This document shows, piece after piece, positions 11,457 through 36,288 of a stretch of DNA of 49,646 nt. The translations under genes and the position numbers were made by a program. The stretch covers positions 1 through 49,646 of IMG/VR virus record IMGVR_UViG_3300025889_000181, one strand, 5' to 3'. The notes beneath the pieces are model-generated. The model was given only the letters and a program-made list of their open reading frames with translations, searched no databases and had not been told where the DNA came from. How positions within the stretch are numbered: the stretch's first letter is position 1; every line of letters begins with the position of its first letter. The stretch comes from a virus.

Positions 11457-14400
11457 ATGGATGTAATTCTCCCAAATGGCCGTTTGATCACAGGCGTTCC
11501 TGACAACGTAACTCAAAAAGAACTAGCCGAGATAGCCATAAATGGGAACATAGCTAGCTTTGAGGACTTTGGGGATCTTTTTGCTGATCAAACTGACCAA
11601 CCTGAAGGCGTTGACTATTACGCAGGCGTTCCTTTAGAGGTAGGTAAAGGTGTTGTCAGGGGCTTTGGATCTGGCTTGCTATCTGCCGGCGCTGGTTTAG
11701 CAGAGCTTGCCGATGTGGGCACGGATTTCATAGGCCTCGAAGACTTAATAGATAGCGGCAACGAGAACGAAATAATTCGTCTGGCCAACGAAGGCAAGCA
11801 AGCTATTAATGAAAGTCTTGGTGTTGGTGACGCATACAAAGATAACTACCTAGTAAAACTTGGCGAAGGCCTTGGATCTATTGGCTCATTCTTTGTTCCC
11901 GGTGGAGCCTTTGGCTTGGGAGCTAAAGCTCTTGGCGGAGCAGCAAGGGCTCAAAGGATAGCGACCACTGCCGGTGCCACTACTGCCGGTGTAGGCACGG
12001 GTGCTTCTGAGCAAGCTGATAGGATAGCCGCTGCCAGAGCTAGAGGAAAGGACGTATCCGCTGATCAAGAAGATCTGGCCATAGCTCTTGGAGGATTGGT
12101 TGGTGCAACGGAAGCTGTTGCTCCTCTTGAAGTTTTAAAAAAAATTAGAAGATTTAGAAACCCCCAGAAGAATGAACAAGCATTCAATGCTGTGGCTAGC
12201 GCATTGAGAACTGGGGTTATAGAAGGAACCCAAGAGGTGGCTGCTAGTTTGATGCAGAATGCCATCGAGGACGGAGTCTATTCTGACAACGTTAACTATA
12301 CTGAATCTTTGTGGGATGACTTTACTGTAGGCGCAGGTGCAGGTGCGCTATTAGATGCTATGACTAACGGCGTTAACCGCCGTAGATCAAGAGCTGTTCT
12401 TGAAGCTGAAAGAGAACGAGAGCAAGTCTTTCGAGACGAAGAAGCCGCTGCTTCTCAAGAGCTTTATGACAGGGCCGAACAAGCTAAACGGCTAGCAGAA
12501 GAAGACGCTGCAAAAGCATCCACTCCGCTAATGAGCGGCATGGAAACGTTTGATCAAGATCAAGTTCAATTCGATTCTACACAGCCTTACTCGGGCAGAA
12601 AAACAAACATGGTTAATAGGGCTGCAGATTATGCTAGCCAGTTAGCAAGAGCCGCTATTCAAAAAAGTGGAGTTTTTCCTGAGTCAGGTAAGTTTAATAT
12701 TGTTGAAGAGAAACTTCCTGACGGCTCAGTATTTAAGGTTGTTCATTCCGAAACAGGTCAACAGTTTGGTCAGCCAGAACAAGAAAGAGAATCTGCTATT
12801 CATTTGATGGCAAATCTTAATCAAGAGCTGATTAATAGAAAGGTTAACGGAGCCGTAATAGACTCTTTAGATCTTGCCCCGCAGGCGTATACACCTGAGC
12901 AAGCAGAAAGCTTGTATGTTATTGGTCAAAGATTAAATAGACCCAAGCGTTTTACTATTACTTCTGGAGTGCTTAACGAAGCAGCCGGGACAACTCAGTC
13001 TCCAAAGGCTCCGTATCAAGAAGATAAGACAATAGATCAGCTCCATGTTCTTCAGTATGGAGTCCCGCCATACACAGACAGAGGTAAAAAACTTTACCGA
13101 GACCTGTCGAATCTGACTGCAGCTCAAGAATTAAACCTTGAAAGAAGAAAGCAAGGCCTTCCCGAAGTCCAAGAGTTTACCTTAGAAGAAGCCAAACAAG
13201 TATTGGGCGACAAATATTCAAAAGTTTTTGATGTTCTTGTAGGTGTCAACTCTCCTGTATCAGATACCACTCCTCCGGTAGGTTCAAGGGTAATAGTTAA
13301 AGAAACTATAACGGATGGCGACAAAACCAAGGGAGTTCAAAAAGTTATTGGAGTAGAGGAAAGGTATGCCGTAGTAAAAGAAAGAGAAGTACGCGGTAAA
13401 AAAATGACTTACCTAGAGTACGAAGCCACGGGCGCTTATACCAAAGAACCGATAACTATTCTTTCCATAGATGGTAAGGATGTAAAGCAAGGATCTATAG
13501 AGCTTGAATCAGTAGATCAAACTACAGAGAACTTTGGTTCTGTTGGGGCTCGGCTAGCTAAAAGCAGGCAAGAGTATCAGGATCAGAAGAGGACGCTTGA
13601 AGAAGTCTCTGCTGTCTTGAAGGAAAAGAATATAACTTCGGATGTTGATAGCCCCGAGGTTAAGTACTTGTTTGAGAAGATTGTAAACGAAACCGATGTT
13701 GGCAGCATGAGTCCTTCTCAAAGAATGCACCTTGTGCAAGAGGTAAGGAAGCTTCCTATTGTCTCTGAGCCTGCATTGCTTCCTGACTTCAGGCCAAAAA
13801 CTTATACGAGCAATCAATACAATGCAGCTGTTCAGTACGTTACTGAGACTGGTGATGGCACTGTTGAAAACATTGAAAGCCAGCTTGGCGACATTGGTTC
13901 AACTAAGCGTGTGAGAAAAGTTGCTTCTGATTTACAAAAGGCAATGAAGAACGCTGGCTTGATCAATGACAAAGACGAAGTTGCTACTCGCACAGCATTG
14001 CCACCTCCAGAACAATACCAGCCAGAGATTAAGCCATACAAGGAAACAGTCTCAGAGGATGCTGCTCAATTAGAAAAGCTTCTCAATGAAGACTTAAGGG
14101 GCATGGGCTTAGATGACATCCGAGTTAGGGTTCTTGACGAGTTAAAAATCGGCCCTGTTACTAGAGAAGGCGAGGTAATCCTTACCGGAAAACCAGAAGA
14201 AAGAGCTGATCCAAATGTTGAAGGCTACTATAAGCCAAGGGCAAACACTGTTTTTCTTGCTCTCGATAGAATTAAACAAACAGCTAGAGATCAAACGCCA
14301 GAGTCCAGAAGAGAAGCATTAGCTGACATCTTAAACCATGAGGTTGTTCATGGCGTTAGGAACTTAGACTTGTGGACAGATAAAGAATGGCGCTTGCTAG

Positions 14401-17400
14401 AAAATTTAGCAAGAAAAAAAGCTGTTCCGGGAACTGGAAACGTTACGTTCTTCAATGATGTTCAATCAAGATATGAAAACTTATCTGCTGTTGGTCAGAT
14501 GGAAGAAGCTGTTGCTGAACTTATTAGGTATGCGCGAAAAGATAAGAAGTTTGTTACTGGGAAGCCTAAGACTTTAGTCGATAGGATGTATAACTTCTTT
14601 GAGAAAACAGGTAACGCTCTTAACGGAACCGGATTCCAAAGCTTCGATGATGTTTTGTCTAGGCTTGAGAAGGGGGAAGTTGGTTCAAGAGAAAGAGATC
14701 AAATAAGAACGCTTAAGTCTACAGAGAAAAAGTTAGGCGCTGTTCCCGAAAGGGGTATAGGCCTGTACCGCGATGTTAGAAATCTTACTCCGCAAACTGG
14801 AGAGGAAGAGATAGCTGCTTCAAGGCAAAGAGATAGAGCAGCAGAGCAAGGCTTTGACACTGAGACTCCTTATTATCATGGCACTGTAGCAGGGAATATT
14901 AAAAAATTCAGAAGCGACCTTTCCAACGTCGCCGCTAGCATGGGAGGCACTAATAATTTAATAGCTGGTCATTTTACTCCAAACGTAGATTTTGCAAATC
15001 GATTTTCAAGGAGCGATGAATACGGGAGTACGTTTCTAAAATCAGATGAAAGTCCCGCTGTCTATCCCGTTTACCTGAGGAAAGGAAAATCTTTTGACGC
15101 AGGAAAAATTTCTAGAGAACGAGACCCCGAAGACGAGCTTCAGGTTTTGCAAGATGAGATAGACAATCTCTCCAATCCTTATTACGAGGAATATGCAAGC
15201 AACCAAATGGCTAAAATGTCTTATGATCCTGATGATGTTGCTGTTAAAAAATCTATCATGGAAGCTAGAAGAGATCAGCTTTCATCTATAGTAGAAGATA
15301 TTTTTGCAAACCCAAGAGAAGTTGCTTTTGCAGAGCTAGAACAGTTGGCTCCATTTATTCGCAGCGCAGGATACGATTCCTACGTTGACTATGAATACGG
15401 ACTAAACGAAGAATTTTCCAACGAGTCTGCTGATGGTGACACTCTTGGGCCTCTTGGTTCTACTGGAATTGCAGTCTTTAAACCCTCAGATATTAAGGGT
15501 GTCTACGCTCAGTATGATCCATCAGGAGTTCCTCAAGGTTACGAATACGAAGACGACATCTTATTCTCAAAGAAGAAAGATACTAAGAGAACTAAGACTG
15601 GACGGTATGTTGGCGCACCCAAAGAACTTAATACGCCCCAAAAGTTAGGAGCCCTCAGAAGATCTATAAAAGGCTTGGCAGAAGAGGGAGAAGGTGGCCG
15701 GTTCTGGTATGAGCAAAGTGGAAAAGCTTTGCTAAACATCACAGGTGGAGACAGGAAAGAGGCAGAAAAGCTTGCTCTAGCCATAGCAATTACATCTCCA
15801 CAAACCCCTGTACCAAGCAACTTTAATTATGCCGTTCAAGCTTATTATCAGTATCGTGCAGGTCAGCCGATCAAGACGGGCATGTATCCCGGTTGGATGA
15901 GCAAGGCGTTAGAGAATGTATTTGCTGGCGGGGAATGGGAAGGTAGGAAGACAAACAACTTCTACAAAAACGTCATGCGAGAGATTGATGCCAGTATCGA
16001 TCAAGGCGTAACTACAGATATATGGATGATGAGAGCCTTTGGTTATATGGGCGACTCACCAACAGATGCTCAATATACCTTCGTTGAGAATGAAGTAAAA
16101 AGGCTGGCTAATGAATTGGGCTGGGAACCTCAACAGGTTCAGGCTGCAGTATGGGTTGCTATGAAAGCGCGTACTGAAAACAAGATGGTCAAGGCCAAGA
16201 CGGAAAAGATATCTCAACGAAAGGGGTACATGAAGTATGAGGTAGATCCAAAGACCAAGAAGAAAACAAGGGTTCTTTTAGATCCAGAAAAGCATAGACA
16301 GACATGGCTCAACGAGGCCATGAAGTATGATCCGACAGGCGCAGAAAAGGATCAAGCTAAGTTTGATTACAGCGATGCTGCTAGGAATAACCTTGCACAG
16401 GTAAGCTGGGAAAGCATTCCGGGAGCTACATCTGGCCACCTAAGGGAGATGTTTGATGCCCAATATCCAGAGCTACAAGAATATCATGTGCAAATATCGA
16501 AGGCATTCCTTAATGAAGACGGCAATGATATTGCTGCTCTTGAGCTTGGGGTTCTTTCTCCGGGAGATTTTGAAGCTCCGGGATATTTTGAGGACAGGGT
16601 TTCTCCGGGTACTCAAACGCAAGTAGTCTCTCCTAAAAAATATAAAGTTAATGCGCCTGCTTTTGAGATAGAACCTTCGTCAGAAGACTTAATAAAAGCT
16701 TACGCTGCGGTTCGTGGCGTGCTTATGAAACAGGATGGCGTTGGATATCATCGACCATTTTACGATAAAGGTTTAAGGAAAGGTGATCTTAACGGTATTG
16801 AGATAGATATTGGCAGGCCGTTTACTGAAGAAGAGACTGCAAATCTTGCTGAGATAATGAAAGAATATTCTGGTCACGGAGAGTACAACCCCATAGGGTC
16901 AGACTCAGGAGCTAGGCTAATAAACTTTGATTACTTAGAAGTCGATAACAATGACTTTAACAACATGGTTATCAAAGCATTAACCAACATGGAGTTTGCT
17001 AACGGAGAGTCAGCCACAGCGGGAAGGTTCGCCGCTCAAGCTGGATACTTAGGTAACGATTGGAAGGTAAATAAAAATGGCGAAAGTTATATCGAAAGTC
17101 TTGGAGAAATCTCACCCGATTTACAGCGAAGGGTTGAAGATATCATCCGTAGGTTACAGCCCAGAATTGATGCAGTCGATAAAGACTTTTCAGAAAGGTA
17201 CGGCTGGACAGAAAACCAAGAGATCAATGAAAGATACAAGCCAAAAGAAAACGCAGTAAAGCCAGATGAGAGTATGCAGCAGGATGAGGTTGTTGAATCT
17301 CGTCGTCGTACAGCATCTGAAGTTGCTGCTGCCTTCGGAGAAAGAAGCCCTCCGGGAACTATTATGCACTCTGTGGATAACTCTCCAGAGGTGCAAGAAG

Positions 17401-20318
17401 CACTTATTGACCAAGAAATACTTGGCGAACCTTTTAGTCTTCAAACAAAAGGCTACTCTTTCGGTGACAAATTTATCTATCAGGTTGCTGACAAGCTCGT
17501 TGGGCTTAAAGATGCCGAAGCAAAGATAAACAAATACAGACAGAGCTTAGGTTTGAAACCTCTTAGTGCAAAAGAGTCTGCATATATCGGAGAAGAATCT
17601 ATTGCCGGCATTCTTGGAAACAAGATGCGTAATTTTCAAGAAGAAAAAAAGAAACCTTTAGCAAAGAAAATTGCTGACTCAGGATACAGTCTGGATGAAG
17701 TTGATGAGTTTCTTATTCTTCGCCATGCCATAGAGCGCAATCAAAAAATTGCAGCCCGTGACAATCAAAGAGATGTCGAGATCAATCCCGGATCTGGAAA
17801 GCTTAAGACAGGTCAAACCCTTACTAACAGTTTTGTTAAACGCAAAATGAAAGAGCGTTATGACATGGACTGGGATGATGCTACTGGAACTTGGACTGGA
17901 GGTAACGCTAGAGCTAAACGCCTTATGGATGTTGCGGCAGATGTCGATGCCATAGTGAATGACACAATAGGATTCACAGTCGAAGGAGGCTTGTTAGATA
18001 AAGATTCTGCTGAAGCAATCAGAACGGCTTACAAATATTATGCCCCCTTGAGAGGCAAAGACATTGAAGATGATTACGCTGAAACTGCAATTATAGGAAG
18101 CAGTATAAGCACTAAGGGCAAAGAATTTCTCAGGGCGATGGGGAGAGAGTCAGCGGCTCAATCCCCCTTGGGACATGTCTTATTAAATGCTGAACGCGCA
18201 ATGGCTAGAGGAGTAAAGAATAAGCAGTTTGGTGAGCGCCTAGTCGATTTGATACGCAACAATCCTGACGAAGATTTTTGGAGGGTTATCTCTCCAGAAG
18301 ACCCAAGGTACATGCGAGCCTTTGAAAAGAAATTTACTTATGTTGGCAATGATAGAGACTTACAAGGTCAGGCATTCAACGAAATACCAAAGGGCGCAGA
18401 CAAGAAAGATTACATACAAAAGATTGTGCTTAAGCGAGACAACCTTGGCCCCGGATTTGATCAAGATCTTATTGGCATTAAGCTAGATGGTAAGCAAGTT
18501 TACGTCGAGCTTGCAGATAAAAGATTAAGAGATGCCATACTTGGTATGGATGGCGGGACTGCAGACAATATTATCCGCAAGTTTGGTGTTGTTAATCGAT
18601 TCCTTTCTATGGTTAACACCTCGCTCAACCCTGAATTTGTTATTGGCAACTTCTCCCGCGATGTTCAGACAGCAGTGTTCAATATCCTTGGCGAGCAAGA
18701 CATGTCAATGGGTAAGGCTAAAGATCAAAAGCTTGTAGCTAAAGTTTTGAAAGATGTGATCCCGTCTATGGGTACTTTTTACAAAGGATCAAGAAGGTAC
18801 TCCACCAAAGACGGCACGTTTAAAGGTAATCTTTTTGGGATGAGTCCTAAAGATCAGGCTGACTTCAAAGAGTTTATGGAAGCTGGTGCTAAGGCAGATT
18901 GGTTTCACTCTAGAAGTCCAGAGGATCAATTCAAAACAGTTCAGTCAATGATTGAAATGGCTAACGGAACGTTTAAAGGAAACTTCCAAAGAAGATTTCA
19001 AAATGTAATGCAGTTTGTTGAAGACTCTAATGCTGCTGTTGAGAATGCTGTTCGACTGTCTACGTTTAAAGCCTCAAGAGATGAGCTGCTTAACGCAGGA
19101 GTTCCTAGATCTGAGGCTGTTGCTCAGGCAGCTTCTCTTGCTAAGAACTTAACGATTAACTTTAACCGGAAAGGTAACGCTGGAGACTTGGTCAACGCTA
19201 TATATTTATTCTTCAATGCTAGCGTTCAAGGCACTGCAAATTTTGCAAGAGGGTTGTTCGGGCCTAATATGAATCCGTTTAGTCCTGAGGCTAGCCGAGT
19301 TAAACAAGGTGCTGTTACATCCTTGATTATGTTTGGTGCTCTGTCTGCATTAAGAGCAGAAGAAGAAAGCGAAGAGAACCCAGAGACCGGAAGGTCTTAT
19401 TACTCAGAGATTCCAAACTATATCAAAGAAAGAAACATCGTTGTTATGGCCGAAGATGGCAAGGATTATTACACTATACCGCTGCCGTATGGGTACAACG
19501 TTTTCCATGTTCTTGGGCAGAATGTTTTCGAGATGAGCAACGGTCACATGTCACCAATGAAGGCAACGTCAAATATAACCAGCGCCTTCTTGGGTTCATT
19601 TTCTCCGGTAGAATTTTCATCTCCTGCGCCAACAATTACGCAGCCATTTGTAGAAATAGCTAAGAATGAAAACTTCTTTGGCTCTCCTATATATCGAGAA
19701 AATTTTCCGACAGGGACTCAGATTCCAGAATCCCAACTGTCTATGTCATCAACAAAACCGGTGTTTAAATGGATGGCTAAATTTGCAAACTCGTTAATAG
19801 ACGGCAATGAACAAGAGTCTGGGACGTTAGATATTTCTCCTGATGTACTAGAGCATCTGGCTGAGTTTATGTTTGGCGGCGCTGGAAAGTTTGGCATGAG
19901 AAGCTTTGACGCTATAGAAAAATGGCAGAAAGGAGAGGACTTAAAAGTTAGAGAGATACCTTTCCTTCGCAGAATCAAAGGCGAGACTGACGGTAACATA
20001 AGCATGGCAGATTTCTACGAGAGAAAGGTTAGGCTTGAACAAAAAGAAGCTAGACTTGAGGCGTTAAGAGGATCAGAAAGATTAGCGTACAGAAGGAGCA
20101 ACGCTGATTACTTGAGGACGCTAAGAGATCTTGAGATCGCAGAAAAACAATTAAGATCTTTAAGGCAACAACGTAATAAACTAAAAGAATTGGCAGCTAG
20201 ATCTCCAGCAAACGCACTAAAGTATGGCAAGGCTGAAGAAGAAATTTACGATAAGATGAACTCGATATACAACAGGTTTAACAAAGCTTATGACTACAAG
20301 GTGGGCAGGACTAAGTAA
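11457..20318 (+). CDS. Large polyvalent protein with zincin, ART-like and LPD38-like domains
   Basis: 2953 residues. Order seen: Gly/Ala-rich hydrophobic N-terminus (about 60-290); a zincin domain with H961-E-V-V-H965 and a downstream E-E-A-V-A-E-L (E1016/E1017) as candidate third ligand; an ADP-ribosyltransferase-like domain starting Y-Y-H1141-G-T and closing near residue 1345 with I-A-V-F-K-P-S-D-I-K-G-V; an unrecognised region with G-G-R-F-W-Y-E-Q-S-G-K-A-L (about 1400-1600); a long C-terminal part with P-E-F-V-I-G-N-F-S-R-D near 2393 and N-A-I-Y-L-F-F-N-A-S near 2570, resembling large polyvalent protein domain 38; then a terminal coiled coil. Such polyvalent proteins of phages and conjugative elements are thought to be co-delivered with DNA and to act on host targets. 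The catalytic state of each domain is unproven. Confidence 0.75.
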   Translation: MDVILPNGRLITGVPDNVTQKELAEIAINGNIASFEDFGDLFADQTDQPEGVDYYAGVPLEVGKGVVRGFGSGLLSAGAGLAELADVGTDFIGLEDLIDSGNENEIIRLANEGKQAINESLGVGDAYKDNYLVKLGEGLGSIGSFFVPGGAFGLGAKALGGAARAQRIATTAGATTAGVGTGASEQADRIAAARARGKDVSADQEDLAIALGGLVGATEAVAPLEVLKKIRRFRNPQKNEQAFNAVASALRTGVIEGTQEVAASLMQNAIEDGVYSDNVNYTESLWDDFTVGAGAGALLDAMTNGVNRRRSRAVLEAEREREQVFRDEEAAASQELYDRAEQAKRLAEEDAAKASTPLMSGMETFDQDQVQFDSTQPYSGRKTNMVNRAADYASQLARAAIQKSGVFPESGKFNIVEEKLPDGSVFKVVHSETGQQFGQPEQERESAIHLMANLNQELINRKVNGAVIDSLDLAPQAYTPEQAESLYVIGQRLNRPKRFTITSGVLNEAAGTTQSPKAPYQEDKTIDQLHVLQYGVPPYTDRGKKLYRDLSNLTAAQELNLERRKQGLPEVQEFTLEEAKQVLGDKYSKVFDVLVGVNSPVSDTTPPVGSRVIVKETITDGDKTKGVQKVIGVEERYAVVKEREVRGKKMTYLEYEATGAYTKEPITILSIDGKDVKQGSIELESVDQTTENFGSVGARLAKSRQEYQDQKRTLEEVSAVLKEKNITSDVDSPEVKYLFEKIVNETDVGSMSPSQRMHLVQEVRKLPIVSEPALLPDFRPKTYTSNQYNAAVQYVTETGDGTVENIESQLGDIGSTKRVRKVASDLQKAMKNAGLINDKDEVATRTALPPPEQYQPEIKPYKETVSEDAAQLEKLLNEDLRGMGLDDIRVRVLDELKIGPVTREGEVILTGKPEERADPNVEGYYKPRANTVFLALDRIKQTARDQTPESRREALADILNHEVVHGVRNLDLWTDKEWRLLENLARKKAVPGTGNVTFFNDVQSRYENLSAVGQMEEAVAELIRYARKDKKFVTGKPKTLVDRMYNFFEKTGNALNGTGFQSFDDVLSRLEKGEVGSRERDQIRTLKSTEKKLGAVPERGIGLYRDVRNLTPQTGEEEIAASRQRDRAAEQGFDTETPYYHGTVAGNIKKFRSDLSNVAASMGGTNNLIAGHFTPNVDFANRFSRSDEYGSTFLKSDESPAVYPVYLRKGKSFDAGKISRERDPEDELQVLQDEIDNLSNPYYEEYASNQMAKMSYDPDDVAVKKSIMEARRDQLSSIVEDIFANPREVAFAELEQLAPFIRSAGYDSYVDYEYGLNEEFSNESADGDTLGPLGSTGIAVFKPSDIKGVYAQYDPSGVPQGYEYEDDILFSKKKDTKRTKTGRYVGAPKELNTPQKLGALRRSIKGLAEEGEGGRFWYEQSGKALLNITGGDRKEAEKLALAIAITSPQTPVPSNFNYAVQAYYQYRAGQPIKTGMYPGWMSKALENVFAGGEWEGRKTNNFYKNVMREIDASIDQGVTTDIWMMRAFGYMGDSPTDAQYTFVENEVKRLANELGWEPQQVQAAVWVAMKARTENKMVKAKTEKISQRKGYMKYEVDPKTKKKTRVLLDPEKHRQTWLNEAMKYDPTGAEKDQAKFDYSDAARNNLAQVSWESIPGATSGHLREMFDAQYPELQEYHVQISKAFLNEDGNDIAALELGVLSPGDFEAPGYFEDRVSPGTQTQVVSPKKYKVNAPAFEIEPSSEDLIKAYAAVRGVLMKQDGVGYHRPFYDKGLRKGDLNGIEIDIGRPFTEEETANLAEIMKEYSGHGEYNPIGSDSGARLINFDYLEVDNNDFNNMVIKALTNMEFANGESATAGRFAAQAGYLGNDWKVNKNGESYIESLGEISPDLQRRVEDIIRRLQPRIDAVDKDFSERYGWTENQEINERYKPKENAVKPDESMQQDEVVESRRRTASEVAAAFGERSPPGTIMHSVDNSPEVQEALIDQEILGEPFSLQTKGYSFGDKFIYQVADKLVGLKDAEAKINKYRQSLGLKPLSAKESAYIGEESIAGILGNKMRNFQEEKKKPLAKKIADSGYSLDEVDEFLILRHAIERNQKIAARDNQRDVEINPGSGKLKTGQTLTNSFVKRKMKERYDMDWDDATGTWTGGNARAKRLMDVAADVDAIVNDTIGFTVEGGLLDKDSAEAIRTAYKYYAPLRGKDIEDDYAETAIIGSSISTKGKEFLRAMGRESAAQSPLGHVLLNAERAMARGVKNKQFGERLVDLIRNNPDEDFWRVISPEDPRYMRAFEKKFTYVGNDRDLQGQAFNEIPKGADKKDYIQKIVLKRDNLGPGFDQDLIGIKLDGKQVYVELADKRLRDAILGMDGGTADNIIRKFGVVNRFLSMVNTSLNPEFVIGNFSRDVQTAVFNILGEQDMSMGKAKDQKLVAKVLKDVIPSMGTFYKGSRRYSTKDGTFKGNLFGMSPKDQADFKEFMEAGAKADWFHSRSPEDQFKTVQSMIEMANGTFKGNFQRRFQNVMQFVEDSNAAVENAVRLSTFKASRDELLNAGVPRSEAVAQAASLAKNLTINFNRKGNAGDLVNAIYLFFNASVQGTANFARGLFGPNMNPFSPEASRVKQGAVTSLIMFGALSALRAEEESEENPETGRSYYSEIPNYIKERNIVVMAEDGKDYYTIPLPYGYNVFHVLGQNVFEMSNGHMSPMKATSNITSAFLGSFSPVEFSSPAPTITQPFVEIAKNENFFGSPIYRENFPTGTQIPESQLSMSSTKPVFKWMAKFANSLIDGNEQESGTLDISPDVLEHLAEFMFGGAGKFGMRSFDAIEKWQKGEDLKVREIPFLRRIKGETDGNISMADFYERKVRLEQKEARLEALRGSERLAYRRSNADYLRTLRDLEIAEKQLRSLRQQRNKLKELAARSPANALKYGKAEEEIYDKMNSIYNRFNKAYDYKVGRTK

Positions 20319-27628: not shown

Positions 27629-28162
27629 TTTACCCAACTGCTGTGTTTTTCTGCCCAGAAAAATGAACCCCTAAAAAAACCCCTCAGCCCTTTGTTAATA
27701 AGGGTTAAATACAAAAACCATTTAAGTCTAGCAAAACCTCCGCCTACTGCTGTGTTTTGTGCGCCTGTTGTAACGTTGTTACCAGCCTCGCTACCAATAG
27801 CAACGTTATGTTCTCCTGCGGTAACACAAATTCTGATTAAAATCTAGACCCTTAAATACAGGGTTTTAAGGAACAAAAATATGACCCCTAATTTCCTTGG
27901 GAAAGTTAGCTATTGAGCAGGCAATAAAAAACCCCTACTCCTTTCGAAGCAGGGGTTCTTTGGTGCGGGAAGGTAAGAGTGTGTGGTCTCTTGATTCAGA
28001 ATATCTCATAGTCTGAGTCAACATGCAAGAGTGCGGCTGTGCCTGACCGTTGGTCATGAAGGGTGCCAGCTAACAGTCAGGCTTTCCAGTGCGCCGCCCA
28101 CCGGCTAGGAGTGCTGGCCCTTATAACTTAACACAAGCCGGCTTAAGAGATGTTTAAAGTGC
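27629..28162. other. Gene-free convergence region
   Basis: No convincing gene. It holds two copies of ACTGCTGTGTTTT (27637, 27746), an 11-bp inverted repeat around TAACGTTG/CAACGTTA (27769-27807), a weak plus-strand hairpin with T-run (about 27848-27866), the strong bidirectional terminator at 27930-27960, and a paired segment GCCTGAC/GTCAGGC at about 28047-28085. No tRNA cloverleaf was found. Confidence 0.6.
27930..27960. terminator. Bidirectional rho-independent terminator
   Basis: Arms AACCCCT and AGGGGTT enclose an inner CTT/AAG pairing. On the plus strand the stem is followed by CTTT; on the minus strand by TTTTTTATT. It sits where the plus early unit and the minus AAA+/VWA unit meet, so it would stop both. 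Confidence 0.85.
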
Positions 28163-28351
28163 TCATTGTTTATCTTCGCAGTTTGGATTGGTTTGCCAAT
28201 AGTCTGGCCAGTGACCCGCGCATACCATCTCTCGATACTCTTTCTCCATTGCCAGCTCATGCTGGTAATCTTGCTCAGACACCCAGAGAAATACGGCGAT
28301 CACCGCAACAATTACAAAGCCAGTTAAAACTTTACGTTCCTCTTCGAACAT
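28163..28351 (-). CDS. Small membrane protein
   Basis: 62 residues. One N-terminal membrane helix (L-T-G-F-V-I-V-A-V-I-A-V-F-L-W-V) followed by a soluble part E-L-A-M-E-K-E-Y-R-E-M-V-C-A-G-H-W-P-D-Y-W. The Y-x-x-M-V-C-x-G-x-W-P-D-Y pattern recurs in small phage membrane proteins of unknown function. Strong AGGGGG ribosome site. Last gene of the minus unit. Spanin-like topology is possible, but there is no lipoprotein partner nearby. Confidence 0.7.
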   Translation of the reverse strand: MFEEERKVLTGFVIVAVIAVFLWVSEQDYQHELAMEKEYREMVCAGHWPDYWQTNPNCEDKQ

Positions 28352-28360
28352 ACATCCCCC

Positions 28361-28672
28361 TTATGTTTTTATCCTGATACCGATATCGATAAGCATAAGC
28401 TCTGCTTCTTTTTCGTGCGTATCATCCGCATACCGATATCCATATGTTACGTCTCGTTCTCTGAGAATCTTAGCCAGTTCTTCTGTCATGTTGATAAACG
28501 TCACGCTTCTGAAATATGTCTCTGCTAAATTCTCGGGCGTGAGACCTTCTCTGGCAGCATAGACCTCGTCCCATGAGACAGAGGTTCCATCCTTATCGTT
28601 ATGAACCTCGGATAATTCCGTTGTTCTCTCGACTGTATCTATTAGGCAGTCAATAATCTTTAACAAACTCAT
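28361..28672 (-). CDS. Hypothetical protein downstream of VWA gene
   Basis: 103 residues from the ATG at 28672 with AGGAG upstream; a longer frame to 28702 lacks a ribosome site. Acidic and helical (I-I-D-C-L-I-D-T-V-E-R-T-T-E-L, E-E-L-A-K-I-L-R-E-R-D-V). No family recognised. Separated from the VWA gene by a very stable C(UUCG)G hairpin, which may set its expression apart. Confidence 0.65.
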   Translation of the reverse strand: MSLLKIIDCLIDTVERTTELSEVHNDKDGTSVSWDEVYAAREGLTPENLAETYFRSVTFINMTEELAKILRERDVTYGYRYADDTHEKEAELMLIDIGIRIKT

Positions 28673-28684
28673 TTCATTCTCCTC

Positions 28685-28700
28685 GGGGGCCGAAGCCCCC
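28685..28700 (-). terminator. C(UUCG)G tetraloop hairpin between VWA and downstream gene
   Basis: In RNA of the minus strand the stem GGGGGC pairs with GCCCCC around a UUCG loop. It lies right after the VWA stop and directly before the ribosome site of the next gene, with no U-tract. More likely an mRNA processing or stability element, or partial attenuator, than a full terminator. Confidence 0.45.
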
Positions 28701-28707
28701 ACTTAAT

Positions 28708-29976
28708 TTAGATCTTAATGATCTCGCCAAACTGCTCGCAACCATCAAACTGCGGATCAGTGAAATTAGTCAACCAGAATACTGGGTAGTCTGGGACTGA
28801 AAACTTCTCACCGTAGTGGGCGTTAGGCCCAACGTCAGCCAGTCCATCAGTGAAGTAGACCAGAGCATTGGGGTTCACATCGTTGTATTCACACCAGTTG
28901 AATGGTGGATTGAACGCAGTGCCGCCGCCGCCGTGCATCTTTAGGACGATGTCATCGCCCCGTTCGAACTCGTCAACGTGGTTGATTGTGAAGTCGCAAT
29001 AGATCACATACACCTTAGTCGGCTTGATGTCAGCCACGATGTCATCGATGTGATGACTGATGACCGATAGATCGTGATCATCCAGTGAGCAAGAGGTGTC
29101 AACTGCGACAACCAGTTCGCCCGTTGGCTCGGTTATATTCGACGGCAACCTCAGCCCCCGAGACAGTAGCCTCCGGTTAGGTTTGGCGTAGGTCTGATCA
29201 ATGACCACGCTATCGCGCAGAGCATCTCTCAGAATCTCATTCCAAGGTTGAGAGTCGCCCTTCAGCGAATCGATCATGTCCCGAGCTTGACCAAGTGAAC
29301 CCTGACCAGCTTTGCGCTCAGCCTGAGCGGCTTGATTGACTGCTGCCGCAACAGACCGTTGCTCCTCAGCTTTGCCAGACTCGTCGAGCAGCTCGCCATC
29401 GTCATCAACCCCGTCCCTAACCTCACCCCAAGGCACGCCAGAGTCAGATTGTGAGGGTGCTCCAGAGTCAGATTGTGAGCTGTCGTCATTACCATCTTGG
29501 CCAGATGAAGAGTCAGATGAAGAGTCAGATGAAGGGTCAGCCCCGTCAGCACCCTTACCACCCTCTCCGTCCTCCTCCTGCTGAGGCTTGCTGATGTCAG
29601 AGTAGATCCGCTCAGCTGCCCAGTCTCGATATTTAGGATTGAACAGTCCGTCATCTGGAAGGGTGAACCCAGCCTTGATCAGACCCTCATTAATGGCGTA
29701 GTCACAGGCTTGATTCCACAGCTTGTGATCACGACCATCTTTCCTCAAATGGTGCCCGTATCCAATGTGAGCGCATTCATGAGCGAGCACACCGGCAACC
29801 TCAGGCACGGTCAGGCTATCTACCCAAACAGGGTTGAAGAAAATACTCTTTCCATCAGTGGCCATAGTCGGCGTGTTGGCAGCATCCTCGACAAGCTGCA
29901 ATCGATAGAGTAAGCAGGCGTAGAAGGGGTGATCTGCAATCATGCGCTGTCGCGCCTTAGCTATTTGCACGTTCAT
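28708..29976 (-). CDS. Metallopeptidase-like plus VWA domain protein (DUF2201)
   Basis: 422 residues. The N-terminal domain has H66-E-C-A-H70 and the following W-N-Q-A-C-D-Y-A-I-N helix, as in the putative metallopeptidase half of DUF2201 proteins. A linker (about 131-185) is Asp/Ser/Gln-rich with short repeats. The C-terminal VWA-like domain has V-V-A-V-D293-T-S295-C-S297 (metal-ion-dependent adhesion site) and Y-F-T-D-G-L-A-D-V. Such proteins pair with MoxR/CobS-type AAA+ ATPases as chaperone or chelatase-like machines; that ATPase is encoded two genes upstream. Target in infection unknown. Confidence 0.85.
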   Translation of the reverse strand: MNVQIAKARQRMIADHPFYACLLYRLQLVEDAANTPTMATDGKSIFFNPVWVDSLTVPEVAGVLAHECAHIGYGHHLRKDGRDHKLWNQACDYAINEGLIKAGFTLPDDGLFNPKYRDWAAERIYSDISKPQQEEDGEGGKGADGADPSSDSSSDSSSGQDGNDDSSQSDSGAPSQSDSGVPWGEVRDGVDDDGELLDESGKAEEQRSVAAAVNQAAQAERKAGQGSLGQARDMIDSLKGDSQPWNEILRDALRDSVVIDQTYAKPNRRLLSRGLRLPSNITEPTGELVVAVDTSCSLDDHDLSVISHHIDDIVADIKPTKVYVIYCDFTINHVDEFERGDDIVLKMHGGGGTAFNPPFNWCEYNDVNPNALVYFTDGLADVGPNAHYGEKFSVPDYPVFWLTNFTDPQFDGCEQFGEIIKI

Positions 29977-29985
29977 AGATATCTC

Positions 29986-30861
29986 CTAGTCAAAAAATCC
30001 AGTCAGTTTGGAAGCGATGTCACGGGCAGTGTCTGCCGCATTTTTGCGTTCAGCAGGGTCATCGCGCAGCTTCTGGGGATCAAGGTCTCTGAGTCTTAAG
30101 ATCAGATCATTCGATACCGCCGTCAATGCGGGGTCACCTGTCAGGTTGATGTTGGGCAGAGTCTCGGCCAACTCCTCAATAGCAGTGACAGTTGAGTCGC
30201 TGAACTTGGAGGCTCGTTGTTGACCCTCACCCTTGGTGCCGTGTCGATCAAGCCCATCGATAAAGCTGTTGAGCACCTTACTCACACGCTCATGGACAGA
30301 CTTCATGCCGGCCTCGATGCGGTCGTTGACATCACGCTCAATCTCAGCGCGTATGGCCTTGACCCGATCATTGGGTAGGTTGACGCGAATGTCATCACCG
30401 CTGGGTAGCTGGCGTAGCAAGTAGTTGATTGAGTACTTGCCGACAATCGCCTCGACCTCAGGGTAATCAGAGGCGTTGAACGCAGACCCGAGCCTGAGCT
30501 GGTCATCTTTGACAATGTCCGGCCATTCTCGTCGCAGTTCAATCTTCAGCTCGTCAAGCTTGTCAGCCTTGGCGCGAAGGTCACGCTCGAAATTGTCGAG
30601 ATTGTCGACAGTGATCAGGTGGACGCCATCCTCCCAAGGCACACACCATTTGCGGATGATCGAGTTGCCGACTTGGCCGATTAGCTTATTGAGTTCCTTA
30701 ACCACGGCAACCTTGGCGAGCCGCTTGCTGACGCGGATGAATCCATCGTCAGCATTCTTATCTACAGTGACCTCGTCGCTGATACGCTTATCGGTGACTG
30801 TGTTATTCCACTTAGTGCAAGTAACCTTGACCAGTAACGCGTTGTTTTGAATCTTATCCAT
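29986..30861 (-). CDS. Partner protein of the AAA+/VWA module (DUF3150-like)
   Basis: 291 residues from the ATG at 30861 with AGGAG nine bases upstream; a longer frame to 30897 runs into the ATPase end. Largely helical, with V-S-K-R-L-A-K-V-A-V-V-K-E-L-N-K-L-I-G and long charged helices; ends in I-A-S-K-L-T-G-F-F-D. Position between ATPase and VWA protein is that of DUF3150 proteins in other phages, but the match is by context more than motif. Probably an adaptor or substrate of the complex. Confidence 0.55.
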   Translation of the reverse strand: MDKIQNNALLVKVTCTKWNNTVTDKRISDEVTVDKNADDGFIRVSKRLAKVAVVKELNKLIGQVGNSIIRKWCVPWEDGVHLITVDNLDNFERDLRAKADKLDELKIELRREWPDIVKDDQLRLGSAFNASDYPEVEAIVGKYSINYLLRQLPSGDDIRVNLPNDRVKAIRAEIERDVNDRIEAGMKSVHERVSKVLNSFIDGLDRHGTKGEGQQRASKFSDSTVTAIEELAETLPNINLTGDPALTAVSNDLILRLRDLDPQKLRDDPAERKNAADTARDIASKLTGFFD

Positions 30862-30871
30862 GTTGGCTCTC

Positions 30872-31969
30872 CTAGATTGCGACACGTTGAGTGTCAATTT
30901 TGAATTGAACGTAGGCCTCTGAGGCCTTCAGGTCTTTGTCACGATTGGTGGCGATGAGGAAAAACACCGCGAGCAGCTCCTCATCAATGCGCCTCAAATA
31001 GCTGACAGCGTTATCGATGTTTCGATTGTCGCAACGCTGAGCCAGTATCGTGGCGATGGCGTACTTCGTCGCCAGCTCTCGGTCATCAGGCACACTGACT
31101 GAATGAGGATCTCGCAGGATATGGCCGGCATCTGGAAGGTTGCGGACAATCTGCAAGAATCCAACAAACTCAGCGGCAGCGCCTTTACCCACTGCACCTT
31201 CAATGGCTGCGTGTTCTAAGGACTTAGGCAGTCCGGCTTGCAGAACGGCAGAGACAGACTCCCAACCGCGAGGTGTAGCAGCGGCAGTAAAACCCTTGGG
31301 TATGCCGCCCTCTGGGTATTCATGGAGCAGTCCAGCCTGATCGATTGAACCGTCACCCTTGAGTACTGGCTTGCCACGATTAGCGATGAAGGCGATCACC
31401 TCAGGCGCGTACCCAGCCGATCCTGCAAAGTTGACCCACTCGTCAACGTCAGGCACCACGTTGAGCTGCACACTGAATCGGGTCATGAGAGCAGCGTCCT
31501 GTCGGCCATGAACGCCGGCACCATCGCATGATCGATTAGACGCGGCGATGATTCTCCAACCCTCGGGCAAGACGTAGTCGCCAAGCTGCCTGTCATTGAT
31601 TAGCTGGTATAAGGATGATTGTACTGACACAGACCCAAGCAGCAGCTCGTCAGTAAACAGGATGCCGTGCTCTCCGTCACGGTCAACACGCGGCAACCAG
31701 TCGGGCAAAGCAAACGCAGTGCGCCCATCGACAAGGTCAGGGATGCCTCTGGTATCGACGGCATCAAGCTGGGACGCTCGAACATCGATGAGACCCCACT
31801 GCTTGCCAGTCTGCTCAGAGAGGGACGCGACGATTGATTGCACAATGGATGATTTGCCCACACCGAATGCACCCCAGAGAAAAACGGGGCGTACCTTGTG
31901 AGGAATAAGCGACTCCACGATAGTGGCCGCTTGGTTGAGTGACACTGTCGCAATGTTTGAATATTGCAT
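30872..31969 (-). CDS. MoxR/CobS-type AAA+ ATPase
   Basis: 365 residues. Walker A at 33-40 (G-A-F-G-V-G-K-S), Walker B G-I-L-F-T-D-E, sensor-1 region I-I-A-A-S-N-R and arginine-rich second region with A-L-M-T-R-F. This is the MoxR branch of AAA+ proteins, which work with VWA-domain partners to remodel proteins or insert metals. First large gene of the minus unit, followed by the partner and VWA genes. The same fold includes CobS, carried by some marine phages, but CobS function is not shown here. Confidence 0.85.
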   Translation of the reverse strand: MQYSNIATVSLNQAATIVESLIPHKVRPVFLWGAFGVGKSSIVQSIVASLSEQTGKQWGLIDVRASQLDAVDTRGIPDLVDGRTAFALPDWLPRVDRDGEHGILFTDELLLGSVSVQSSLYQLINDRQLGDYVLPEGWRIIAASNRSCDGAGVHGRQDAALMTRFSVQLNVVPDVDEWVNFAGSAGYAPEVIAFIANRGKPVLKGDGSIDQAGLLHEYPEGGIPKGFTAAATPRGWESVSAVLQAGLPKSLEHAAIEGAVGKGAAAEFVGFLQIVRNLPDAGHILRDPHSVSVPDDRELATKYAIATILAQRCDNRNIDNAVSYLRRIDEELLAVFFLIATNRDKDLKASEAYVQFKIDTQRVAI

Positions 31970-32045
31970 GGTTTATTACTCCTAGTAATTGTGGCGGATT
32001 CCACAGACCCCGAAGGGTTTCGGCTGATATCCAATCAGCAGCTCG

Positions 32046-32240
32046 TCAGTGTGGGCGATGCTCTCGGCGCTTTAGTTCAGAGAAGCAATAAAGGATTTCA
32101 TCCTGATACTGTCCGGCCTTGGGGTTATCAGGCATTGCAGCTAGAGCCTGACGGCAGTCTTCGATGACGTACCGTAATGAATGAGTGCTGCGCTTCTTGC
32201 AGTCTCTGATGTAGTCGCTGTGCCAGTTGCTATAGTCCAT
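32046..32240 (-). CDS. Conserved small phage protein
   Basis: 64 residues from the ATG at 32240 with GAGGAG upstream. S-L-R-Y-V-I-E-D-C-R-Q-A-L-A-A-M-P-D-N-P-K-A-G followed by Y-Q-D-E-I-L-Y-C is a pattern that recurs in phages without known function. A longer frame to 32312 has no ribosome site. Just upstream of the ATPase. Confidence 0.75.
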   Translation of the reverse strand: MDYSNWHSDYIRDCKKRSTHSLRYVIEDCRQALAAMPDNPKAGQYQDEILYCFSELKRREHRPH

Positions 32241-32251
32241 CTTGATTCTCC

Positions 32252-32407
32252 TCAGTGTAGATTTTTGATTAGGTATTGGATGCGGCGGGCTTCTTGCCAG
32301 AGTAACGCGCACTCATTGGATGTGTAGCGGGTTTGACCCGATAACTCTAACGCGACAATCTTCGGCGTTATTTCGTTTAGTTGATGGTTAAGTTCTGTCT
32401 TGTTCAT
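32252..32407 (-). CDS. Small hypothetical protein, first of the AAA+/VWA unit
   Basis: 51 residues, beginning M-N-K-T-E-L-N-H-Q-L-N-E-I and including C-A-L-L-W-Q-E-A-R-R-I-Q-Y-L-I. A strong AAGGAG ribosome site precedes the ATG, and its stop TGA leads straight into the GGAG of the next gene. Soluble and helical. Function unknown. Confidence 0.65.
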   Translation of the reverse strand: MNKTELNHQLNEITPKIVALELSGQTRYTSNECALLWQEARRIQYLIKNLH

Positions 32408-33078: not shown

Positions 33079-33092
33079 TGTCAACGTTGACA
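33079..33092. promoter_or_regulatory. 14-bp perfect palindrome before TerS
   Basis: TGTCAACGTTGACA is a perfect palindrome 74 bp before the TerS start. It could be an operator. No second copy was seen. Confidence 0.4.
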
Positions 33093-34099: not shown

Positions 34100-35611
34100 A
34101 TGGCTATAGAAGATCGAATAGATCCTAATCTTTTAAAAAACATTGATAAGCTACCAGTTAAGGATCAAGAAGAAATTCTTATTCTTTTGGAAGAGCTAGA
34201 AGATGCTGAAAAAAAAGAAAAGGCTAGGAATACCTTCATAGGGTTTGTCAATAAGGTTTGGCCGGCTTTTATTGAAGGGCGGCATCATAAGATCATGGCC
34301 AATGCTTTTGAACGTGTTGCCAAAGGAGAACTTAAAAGACTTATTGTTAATATGCCGCCAAGGCATACCAAGTCTGAGTTTGCATCGTTCTTATTGCCCG
34401 CATGGTTTTTGGGCAACTATCCTGAAAAGAAAATAATTCAAACCGCTCACACCGCAGAATTATCTGTTGGTTTTGGGCGTAAAGTTAGAAACCTTGTAGA
34501 CAGTGATGACTATAAGTCTATATTTCCGAATGTGCTGTTGAGGTCTGACTCCAAGGCCGCTGGTCGATGGAGTACCAACAAAGGTGGCGAATACTTCGCT
34601 ATTGGTGTTGGAGGTGCAGTTACAGGTAAAGGCGCGGATCTTCTTGTTATCGACGACCCTCATAGTGAGCAAGAAGGTCAAAGCTCTGACCCTTCCGTCT
34701 TTGACCGTGTATATGACTGGTATACCTCTGGGCCTCGACAGCGCCTCCAACCCGGAGGATCGATAATTGTTGTTATGACTCGTTGGCATAAACGGGACTT
34801 AACAGGACAAATACTAAAATCATCCTTGCAAAGAGCAGGATCAGATGAATGGGAGCTTATAGAGTTTCCTGCTTTAATGCCGTCAGATGAGCCGCTTTGG
34901 CCTGAGTTCTGGCCTAAAGACGAACTAGAGGCTTTAAGAAACGAGCTACCTGCTCCAAAATGGAACGCCCAGTACCAACAAAACCCAACCTCAGAAGAGG
35001 GCGCGTTAGTTAAAAGAGACTGGTGGAGGACTTGGGAAAAAGACAATCCTCCGATGTGCGAGTTTATTATCCAATCTTGGGATACAGCATTTCTTAAAAC
35101 ACAAAGATCTGACTTTTCGGCATGTACAACGTGGGGAGTTTTTTATCACTCAGACAGCTCAGGTATTGAACAGCCAAATATTATTCTTCTGGATGCACAT
35201 AAAGAAAGGCTAGAGTTTCCAGAGCTTAAGAAAAAAGCTTATGAAATGTGGGTTGATTGGCAACCCGATGCCTTTATCGTAGAAGCCAAAGCAGCAGGAA
35301 CGCCCCTAATATTTGAATTAAGATCAATGGGCATTCCGGTTTCTGAGTATACTCCGTCCAGAGGCAACGATAAGATTTCTAGGGTAAACGCTGTATCAGA
35401 TCTTTTTGCGTCCGGTATTGTTTGGGCACCTGAGTTAAGGTTCGCAGAAGAAGTTATTGAAGAGTTTGCTGCATTTCCAGCAGGGGAACATGATGACCTT
35501 GTTGACTCCTCTACGCAGGCATTGCTTAGGTTTAGACAGGGCGGATTCCTGAAGCTAAACAGCGATGAGGAAGACGAACCGTTTTATCCCAAAAAGGCTA
35601 TCTACTACTAA
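34100..35611 (+). CDS. terL: Terminase large subunit
   Basis: 503 residues. ATPase: Walker A-like M-P-P-R-H89-T-K91-S-E, Walker B D-L-L-V-I-D185-D-P. Nuclease (RNase H fold): S-W-D328-T-A-F, V-E395-A-K-A-A-G, and H464-D-D466-L-V-D-S. It drives DNA into the head and cuts concatemers. The ribosome site is weak (TTTTAAGT), and the 18-bp repeats come to within 8 bases of the start, so translation may be affected by whatever binds there. Stop overlaps next start (TAATG). Confidence 0.95.
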   Translation: MAIEDRIDPNLLKNIDKLPVKDQEEILILLEELEDAEKKEKARNTFIGFVNKVWPAFIEGRHHKIMANAFERVAKGELKRLIVNMPPRHTKSEFASFLLPAWFLGNYPEKKIIQTAHTAELSVGFGRKVRNLVDSDDYKSIFPNVLLRSDSKAAGRWSTNKGGEYFAIGVGGAVTGKGADLLVIDDPHSEQEGQSSDPSVFDRVYDWYTSGPRQRLQPGGSIIVVMTRWHKRDLTGQILKSSLQRAGSDEWELIEFPALMPSDEPLWPEFWPKDELEALRNELPAPKWNAQYQQNPTSEEGALVKRDWWRTWEKDNPPMCEFIIQSWDTAFLKTQRSDFSACTTWGVFYHSDSSGIEQPNIILLDAHKERLEFPELKKKAYEMWVDWQPDAFIVEAKAAGTPLIFELRSMGIPVSEYTPSRGNDKISRVNAVSDLFASGIVWAPELRFAEEVIEEFAAFPAGEHDDLVDSSTQALLRFRQGGFLKLNSDEEDEPFYPKKAIYY

Positions 35612-36288
35612 TGGCGTTCTTGCAGAGCAATATTCCCTACTTTAAATGTTGGGTTAGACGAGAGTACACCCATAACAACCAGAAGTATCATGGCGAGTTT
35701 TTGCATGCAATGGCTGTAGCTGTTACAACAATGCCAAAGAGATGCTTAAGTTTTCAGGTTATTTTTACTGGCGCTGAAACTTACGATGATGAAGAACAAC
35801 AAAATGTTCATGGCGGAGCGATGTGGGCTAGAATGCCTATTACCGCTTTGGTGGGCGACACTCCTTTTGAAGAGTGGCCCAATGAATTACCCGTATGGGC
35901 GGCACAACCTTGGGATTGTATGTCGCATACTCATGCAGTTTATCAGATAGAAAGAGCAAGCCCAGCGCCTTGGTTTGCTAAAGTAGATGGAGAGTTTTAC
36001 CCAGCAAAGTATTACTTTACTGTAGACTACACAGATAATGAGGTGGCGGATGATCCAGCTCAGCATAAACAAAGCCATGTGCTAGAGTTGCTTAATGCTG
36101 GCGAGTACACGGGAAATATTGTTGCCCTGCCTAATAATAGAGTAAGGGTGACGCATCCAGCTTGGTTTGAAACTGGAGTTGGCGCTCCAGACTTTAGGCC
36201 TAATCAACGAACCTACAACTCAAAAGATGATGTAGAGTATATTCATGACACAAAGCGGGTTTTTGACAACCTGTACAGTGAGGATTAA
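35611..36288 (+). CDS. Hypothetical protein between TerL and portal
   Basis: 225 residues, not recognised. Rich in Trp, Tyr and Phe; contains F-L-H-A-M-A-V-A-V-T-T-M-P-K-R-C-L-S-F-Q-V-I-F, G-G-A-M-W-A-R-M-P-I-T-A-L-V and W-D-C-M-S-H-T-H-A-V. This late-gene position is often held by conserved marine-phage proteins of unknown role. Beta-rich, no membrane segment. A packaging or head-assembly function is inferred from neighbours. Confidence 0.7.
   Translation: MAFLQSNIPYFKCWVRREYTHNNQKYHGEFLHAMAVAVTTMPKRCLSFQVIFTGAETYDDEEQQNVHGGAMWARMPITALVGDTPFEEWPNELPVWAAQPWDCMSHTHAVYQIERASPAPWFAKVDGEFYPAKYYFTVDYTDNEVADDPAQHKQSHVLELLNAGEYTGNIVALPNNRVRVTHPAWFETGVGAPDFRPNQRTYNSKDDVEYIHDTKRVFDNLYSED

What the first reader, a model, noticed from the sequence alone, without database searches (positions are those of the whole stretch)
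28163..32407. AAA+ / partner / metallopeptidase-VWA module in a short-tailed phage
A MoxR-type ATPase, a helical partner and a DUF2201-type protein with intact HECAH and DTSCS motifs form one minus-strand unit, between a terminator and a control region. Such machines remodel proteins or insert metals, but their purpose in phages is not known. Intact catalytic motifs suggest a working device against a host target or defence.
Basis: partly seen in the sequence, partly recalled or inferred. Interest (0 to 1): 0.6.

Follow-up and report, generated by a model that had tools for sequence, protein, structure and literature searches.

The report
Three-part phage protein-remodelling protease machine
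This phage carries an intact ATP-driven protein-remodelling machine with a metal-dependent protease-like part and a third, previously unlinked partner (DUF3150); the same kind of trio sits beside DNA-recombination genes on conjugative plasmids, which points to a job in handling DNA rather than in fighting bacterial defences.

Summary
In detail: on the minus strand, 28708-31969 encodes a MoxR/midasin-like AAA+ ATPase, a helical protein, and a DUF2201 metallopeptidase+VWA protein, ending at a strong terminator. The two-gene core is not new. It occurs in 518 of 50,697 phage records, includes N4 core genes gp24/gp25, and was described in jumbo phages in 2021 (proposed role: virion assembly). What I add: (1) the 'helical partner' is a divergent DUF3150 protein and a recurrent third component, absent from N4 and several other phages; (2) HExxHxxxxH (48/48) and all ATPase signature residues are invariant, as is the MIDAS in every homologue covering it, and all three genes are under purifying selection; (3) the same AAA-DUF3150-HExxH/VWA architecture lies in Bet/RecT-exonuclease-SSB operons of IncC-type and other elements, while the phage copies often lie near primase-helicase, polymerase, exonuclease or annealing genes. 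Best explanation: an ATP-powered remodelling/cleavage machine serving replication-recombination nucleoprotein complexes. Machine type is well supported; the DNA role is inferred from gene neighbourhood only. The cobaltochelatase reading is disfavoured; an anti-defence role has no specific support.

The parts
30872..31969 (-). MoxR/midasin-type AAA+ ATPase (365 aa)
   Evidence: phrog_1297 E 1.2e-64, AAA_5 at Pfam cut-off; midasin best solved relative, E 7e-12; GK[ST], N145, R164, R234 invariant in 46/46 non-redundant homologues
31850..31873 (-). Walker A (GAFGVGKS)
   Evidence: sequence; invariant GK[ST] in 46/46 homologues
29986..30861 (-). Third component: divergent DUF3150-superfamily protein, helical with a small beta head (291 aa)
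   Evidence: hhalign to PF11348 members P 97.6, E 4.7e-12, reversed controls E 0.18 and 0.26; Foldseek BFVD top hit a phage DUF3150 protein, E 1.4e-17, TM 0.79; tblastn E 2e-16 to annotated DUF3150 of phage MinM2
28708..29976 (-). DUF2201 protein: metallopeptidase-like domain + acidic/Ser linker + VWA domain (422 aa)
   Evidence: PF13203 E 4.8e-48, PF09967 E 1.4e-14; phrog_1314 E 1.5e-89; model pLDDT 78.9, linker 133-179 low confidence
29752..29781 (-). Zinc-site motif HECAHIGYGH (HExxHxxxxH)
   Evidence: H66, E67, H70, H75 invariant in 48/48 homologues and in alignment A5
29086..29100 (-). MIDAS motif DTSCS (plus T353 and D377 of the protein)
   Evidence: D293, S295, S297 in 48/48; T353 and D377 in 47/47 that cover them
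28361..28672 (-). Small downstream gene of unknown function (103 aa from ATG; open frame to GTG 28702)
   Evidence: conserved only in the closest relatives L002-L005 and same-contig copies
28163..28351 (-). Small downstream gene (62 aa) with a hydrophobic N-terminal stretch, phrog_6168
   Evidence: E 2.2e-9; conserved in near relatives, weak match in L006
32046..32312 (-). Small upstream gene (likely start ATG near 32240)
   Evidence: conserved in near relatives only
27924..27963 (-). Intrinsic terminator closing the minus-strand unit
   Evidence: MFE -27.9 kcal/mol, z -5.4, followed by U-run

Best explanation
The unit encodes a three-component ATP-driven machine: a MoxR-type AAA+ ring, a VWA cochaperone that carries its own zinc-metallopeptidase-like domain, and a DUF3150 helical adaptor. 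By analogy with NorQD, RavA-ViaA and midasin, the VWA protein docks on the ring through its MIDAS and presents a bound substrate; ATP hydrolysis remodels the substrate, and the HExxH domain can cut it. From gene neighbourhood I infer that its substrates are proteins in replication/recombination nucleoprotein complexes of the phage (for example annealing protein, SSB, primase-helicase or DNA-end-binding proteins). Shown here by computation: the fold and family assignments, intact active sites, purifying selection, the conserved trio and its neighbourhood. Inferred: complex formation, proteolysis, the substrate and the DNA role.
For: Machine: families and motifs; VWA model matches include NorD and midasin-MIDAS among Foldseek hits, and selecase for the peptidase half, all weak; purifying selection. 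Trio: DUF3150 partner between or beside AAA and VWA in diverse viral contigs and in Acidobacteria/Burkholderiales and in phage MinM2. DNA role: on an IncC plasmid the order is AAA-hyp-ssb-bet-exo-DUF3150-VWA, on a Vibrio plasmid nearly the same cluster, on a Pseudomonas plasmid ssb-RecT-exo-AAA-DUF3150-VWA; RecT-YqaJ directly before DUF3150 in L119 and YqaJ in L114; the plasmid VWA proteins also carry an invariant HExxH and MIDAS in 10/10. In phages the module lies near primase-helicase, exo and Sak genes in L025, L026, L029, L042, L044 and near primase-helicase in L006, L038, L121; primase/helicase families are the commonest among 96 neighbouring ORFs; DNA polymerase is near in CRP-7 and RHph_TM27A. 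Published: in SXT, deletions of bet, exo, s067, s068 and s070, which have IncA/C orthologues, had only mild (up to 10-fold) effects on transfer (PMC2791158), compatible with an accessory role.
Against: No biochemical or genetic evidence for any phage copy. Phage early/middle genes cluster together anyway, so neighbourhood to primase is weak evidence. Terminase or portal genes also lie within 8 kb in some loci (L025, L032, L037, L053, L046). The plasmid trio's HExxH domain is CobT-like and aligned to the phage protein only over the VWA part, so the metallopeptidase halves may not be homologous. Many phages carry AAA+VWA alone.
Confidence: 0.42

Rival explanations
1. Virion assembly/maturation chaperone-protease, as proposed for MoxR-vWA with N-terminal metallopeptidase in group 2.2 jumbo phages and by analogy with the Acidianus two-tailed virus.
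For: Published proposal (PMC7824862). In some phages terminase or portal genes are close.
Against: The trio is also on plasmids, which make no virions. Neighbours are more often replication genes. N4 gp24/25 are middle genes (PMC4193335).
Confidence: 0.22
2. Counter-defence or host-takeover protease that degrades a host or defence protein.
For: Intact active sites and strong selection; patchy distribution over unrelated phages and plasmids, both of which face host defences.
Against: No convincing PADLOC match; no defence or anti-defence neighbours identified; core gene in N4-like phages irrespective of host (PMC4193335).
Confidence: 0.2
3. CobST-type cobaltochelatase subunits that borrow host CobN to boost cobalamin synthesis.
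For: Published proposal for the pair in archaeal and bacterial tailed viruses (PMC8651126); the IncC AAA scores 105 bits to TIGR01650 CobS.
Against: That score is far below the 558-bit cut-off, and the window ATPase and DUF2201 protein match no NCBIfam model at all; no CobT/CobT_C Pfam match for the window or N4 protein; CobN is not detected in 9 of 14 bacterial genomes that carry the module, nor in the E. coli control.
Confidence: 0.05
4. Ordinary accessory chaperone with a still different client (for example a metalloenzyme needing cofactor insertion).
For: MoxR-VWA pairs such as NorQD insert metals (PMC13036017 abstract); N4 gp25 lies beside dCTP deaminase.
Against: No metalloenzyme is a constant neighbour.
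Confidence: 0.11

Closest known systems
N4 gp24/gp25 (Schitoviridae core genes, PHROG 1297/1314)
   Same: Same AAA+ and DUF2201 metallopeptidase-VWA pair, all motifs shared
   Different: About 24-28% identical; no DUF3150 found anywhere in the N4 genome by profile search
MoxR + metallopeptidase-vWA pair of group 2.2 jumbo phages (PMC7824862)
   Same: Same described architecture: MoxR AAA+ with vWA cochaperone fused to an N-terminal metallopeptidase
   Different: That passage describes a pair; a third DUF3150 partner is not mentioned in it; the sequences were not compared here
Synechococcus phage MinM2 MoxR-DUF3150-VWA genes
   Same: All three components in the same order, DUF3150 annotated by the depositors
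   Different: Small extra genes between the components; 23% identity in the DUF3150 part
IncC-type AAA-ssb-bet-exo-DUF3150-VWA cluster
   Same: AAA, DUF3150 and an HExxH + MIDAS VWA protein
   Different: VWA protein is CobT-like, not DUF2201; interleaved with recombination genes
NorQD / RavA-ViaA / CbbQO MoxR-VWA chaperones
   Same: AAA+ with VWA cochaperone; mechanism model
   Different: No zinc-peptidase domain and no DUF3150 known to me in these systems (own knowledge)

Membership tests
MoxR AAA+ / VWA chaperone pairs | AAA_5/midasin-type ATPase with intact P-loop, sensor 1 and arginine finger | tested here: met
MoxR AAA+ / VWA chaperone pairs | Linked VWA protein with intact MIDAS | tested here: met
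   DxSxS, T, D invariant; linkage
MoxR AAA+ / VWA chaperone pairs | Physical AAA-VWA complex and ATP-dependent remodelling | not testable with these tools
   needs purified proteins
DUF2201 metallopeptidase-VWA (PF13203 + PF09967) | Both Pfam domains over their cut-offs, HExxH present | tested here: met
   HExxHxxxxH 48/48
DUF2201 metallopeptidase-VWA (PF13203 + PF09967) | Actual zinc binding and peptidase activity | not testable with these tools
   needs purified protein
DUF3150 (PF11348) | Match to the Pfam model over its cut-off | tested here: not met
   window protein does not match; nearest family member L072 only E 0.068
DUF3150 superfamily | Profile-profile homology and shared fold | tested here: met
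   hhalign E 4.7e-12 with clean reversed controls; fold match to DUF3150 phage protein E 1.4e-17
Cobaltochelatase CobST | CobS / CobT family models | tested here: not met
   no CobT/CobT_C match; no NCBIfam match
Cobaltochelatase CobST | CobN available in the carrier cell | tested here: inconclusive
   9 of 14 carrier bacterial genomes lack a detectable CobN, some are drafts or MAGs; host of this phage unknown
Known anti-phage defence proteins (PADLOC) | Significant match to a defence model | tested here: not met
   best E 0.007, ATPase part only

The most novel reading that the evidence does not exclude
AAA+/DUF3150/metallopeptidase-VWA is an ATP-powered protease that strips or cleaves proteins stuck on DNA during phage and plasmid recombination, a mobile-element counterpart of Spartan/Wss1-type DNA-protein-crosslink repair.
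Probability: 0.1. Interest if true: 0.82.

Novelty: new variant of a known kind. Interest (0 to 1): 0.5.

Why it matters
A widespread, strictly conserved phage machine has had only guesses for a function, and its name in databases ('HNH endonuclease') is misleading. Identifying the third partner as DUF3150 ties the phage genes to the ssb-bet-exo region of IncC and related conjugative elements, gives a concrete, testable DNA-metabolism hypothesis, and offers a laboratory model (N4 gp24/gp25 in E. coli K-12).

Tried and rejected
Nucleotide search against phages: no match. PADLOC: nothing convincing. Pfam/PHROGs for the partner gene: no direct hit in the window protein; only relatives, profile-profile and fold comparison worked. 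A first DUF3150 alignment mixed in the neighbouring VWA gene and was discarded; redone correctly. Searched for a hidden partner gene in N4, CRP-7, RHph_TM27A, phiFa, phage G, EduardKellenberger and 7 viral contigs: none. N-terminal extensions of Lachnospiraceae and Kineococcus DUF2201 proteins are not detectably DUF3150. PDB fold search for the partner gave only generic helical matches. The PF06418 search used a wrong accession and says nothing. No functional data on N4 gp24/gp25 were seen in the passages read of the CRISPRi-ART paper. Tree of the VWA protein: partner presence needs 7 changes (shuffled mean 15.7), backbone unresolved, one origin not ruled out.

Full report
OBSERVATION. The minus strand carries AAA+ (30872-31969), a partner (29986-30861) and a DUF2201 protein (28708-29976), about 10 nt apart. 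Families: phrog_1297 ATPase E 1e-64 and AAA_5; DUF2201_N E 5e-48 plus DUF2201 E 1e-14; phrog_1314 E 1e-89. The unit ends at a strong intrinsic terminator.

INTACT AND SELECTED. In 48 non-redundant homologues of the DUF2201 protein, H66, E67, H70, H75 (HExxHxxxxH) are invariant. The MIDAS residues D293, S295, S297 are present in 48/48, and T353 and D377 in the 47 rows that cover them. In 46 ATPases the P-loop GK[ST], N145, R164 and R234 are invariant. Caveat: the homologues were fetched with peptide patterns, mainly WN.ACD, just beyond the HExxH motif, so conservation of W87-D92 is partly by selection, but HExxH and MIDAS were not search terms. Against a relative with 95% protein identity (L004), dN/dS is about 0.03 (AAA), 0.05 (partner) and 0.11 (DUF2201).

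NOT A NEW PAIR. The DUF2201 protein has relatives in 518 of 50,697 phage records. N4 gp24/gp25 are the same pair, both listed as core genes of N4-like phages (PMC4193335). A 2021 survey described MoxR plus metallopeptidase-vWA in jumbo phages and proposed virion assembly (PMC7824862). Another paper reads such pairs as CobST (PMC8651126).

THE THIRD PARTNER. The partner gene has no Pfam or PHROG match of its own, but is recognisable beside AAA and VWA in many viral contigs, in two Acidobacteria and in Cupriavidus. Its profile aligns to genuine PF11348 (DUF3150) proteins over 226 columns at E 4.7e-12; reversed profiles give 0.18 and 0.26. Its model (pLDDT 88.8) matches a phage DUF3150 protein at E 1.4e-17, TM 0.79. 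Phage MinM2 has the annotated order MoxR - DUF3150 - VWA. The window protein does not itself reach the Pfam cut-off, so I call it a divergent member of the DUF3150 superfamily. Whole-record profile searches do not find it in N4, CRP-7, RHph_TM27A, phiFa, phage G or EduardKellenberger, so two- and three-part forms exist.

PLASMIDS. DUF3150 proteins occur on 1,098 of 72,556 plasmid records, mostly conjugative. On an IncC plasmid the gene order is AAA, unknown, ssb, bet, exonuclease, DUF3150, VWA; a Vibrio plasmid repeats it without an annotated ssb; a Pseudomonas plasmid has ssb, RecT, exonuclease, AAA, two small genes, DUF3150, VWA. In the Burkholderiales loci L114 and L119 annealing-protein (Bet/RecT) and YqaJ exonuclease genes precede DUF3150. 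The VWA proteins there are CobT-like, with HExxH and MIDAS invariant in 10/10, although only the VWA part aligns to the phage family. Cupriavidus plasmids carry the phage-like trio near a PRTRC cassette.

PHAGE NEIGHBOURHOOD. In the window clade and in more distant contigs the module sits beside primase-helicase, exonuclease and Sak-type annealing genes. Among 96 neighbouring ORFs of 18 trio loci, primase/helicase families are the most frequent. These loci are partly related, so the counts are not independent. Terminase or portal genes are near in some loci.

MECHANISM. I propose an AAA+ ring with a VWA-metallopeptidase cochaperone and a DUF3150 adaptor that remodels and can cut proteins in replication/recombination complexes (confidence 0.42). 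Shown: families, folds, intact sites, selection, synteny. Inferred: complex, proteolysis, DNA role. In SXT, deletion of bet, exo, s067, s068 or s070 reduced transfer at most 10-fold (PMC2791158); by synteny with IncC some of these are probably the DUF3150 and VWA genes, which I did not verify.

RIVALS. Virion assembly: weakened by plasmid copies. Cobaltochelatase: no CobT/CobS family match in the window, and CobN is undetected in 9 of 14 carrier genomes and in E. coli. Counter-defence: not excluded, no specific support. Other chaperone clients remain possible.

VERDICT. A real, intact and probably important machine; the pair is known, the DUF3150 link and the shared recombination setting are the new part.

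Noticed in passing
phrog_1314; N4 gp25 (L022:3165-4307): The database name 'HNH endonuclease' for this family looks wrong: the domains are metallopeptidase and VWA (E 3e-87 and 1e-46). HNH-type ORFs do interrupt the neighbouring AAA gene in some relatives, a possible source of the name.
   Followed up: partly
L057:5747-7924 and L068:5977-7897: The AAA gene of two relatives is split by inserts carrying homing-endonuclease-like ORFs; a group I intron is detected just upstream in L057 (Rfam RF00028, 101 bits; ORFs).
   Followed up: partly
L084:5332-7188: Lachnospiraceae DUF2201 protein has two metallopeptidase copies, the first degenerate (HCLLH), the second intact.
   Followed up: no
OQ594354.1, OL906435.1, PP438419.1: Three phage records named for different cyanobacterial hosts have identical length (65,014) and the same match, so probably one phage under three names.
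   Followed up: no
window 35611-36288: Gene beside the terminase matches PHROG 3704 'ferredoxin' (E 2e-30), an odd companion for packaging genes.
   Followed up: no
window 11457-20318: Single 2,953-codon open reading frame, very large for a 50-kb phage.
   Followed up: no
window 33080-33091: Perfect 12-bp palindrome GTCAACGTTGAC just upstream of the terminase small subunit, operator-like.
   Followed up: no
L122, L128: On Cupriavidus plasmids the trio lies a few kilobases from a PRTRC cassette.
   Followed up: no
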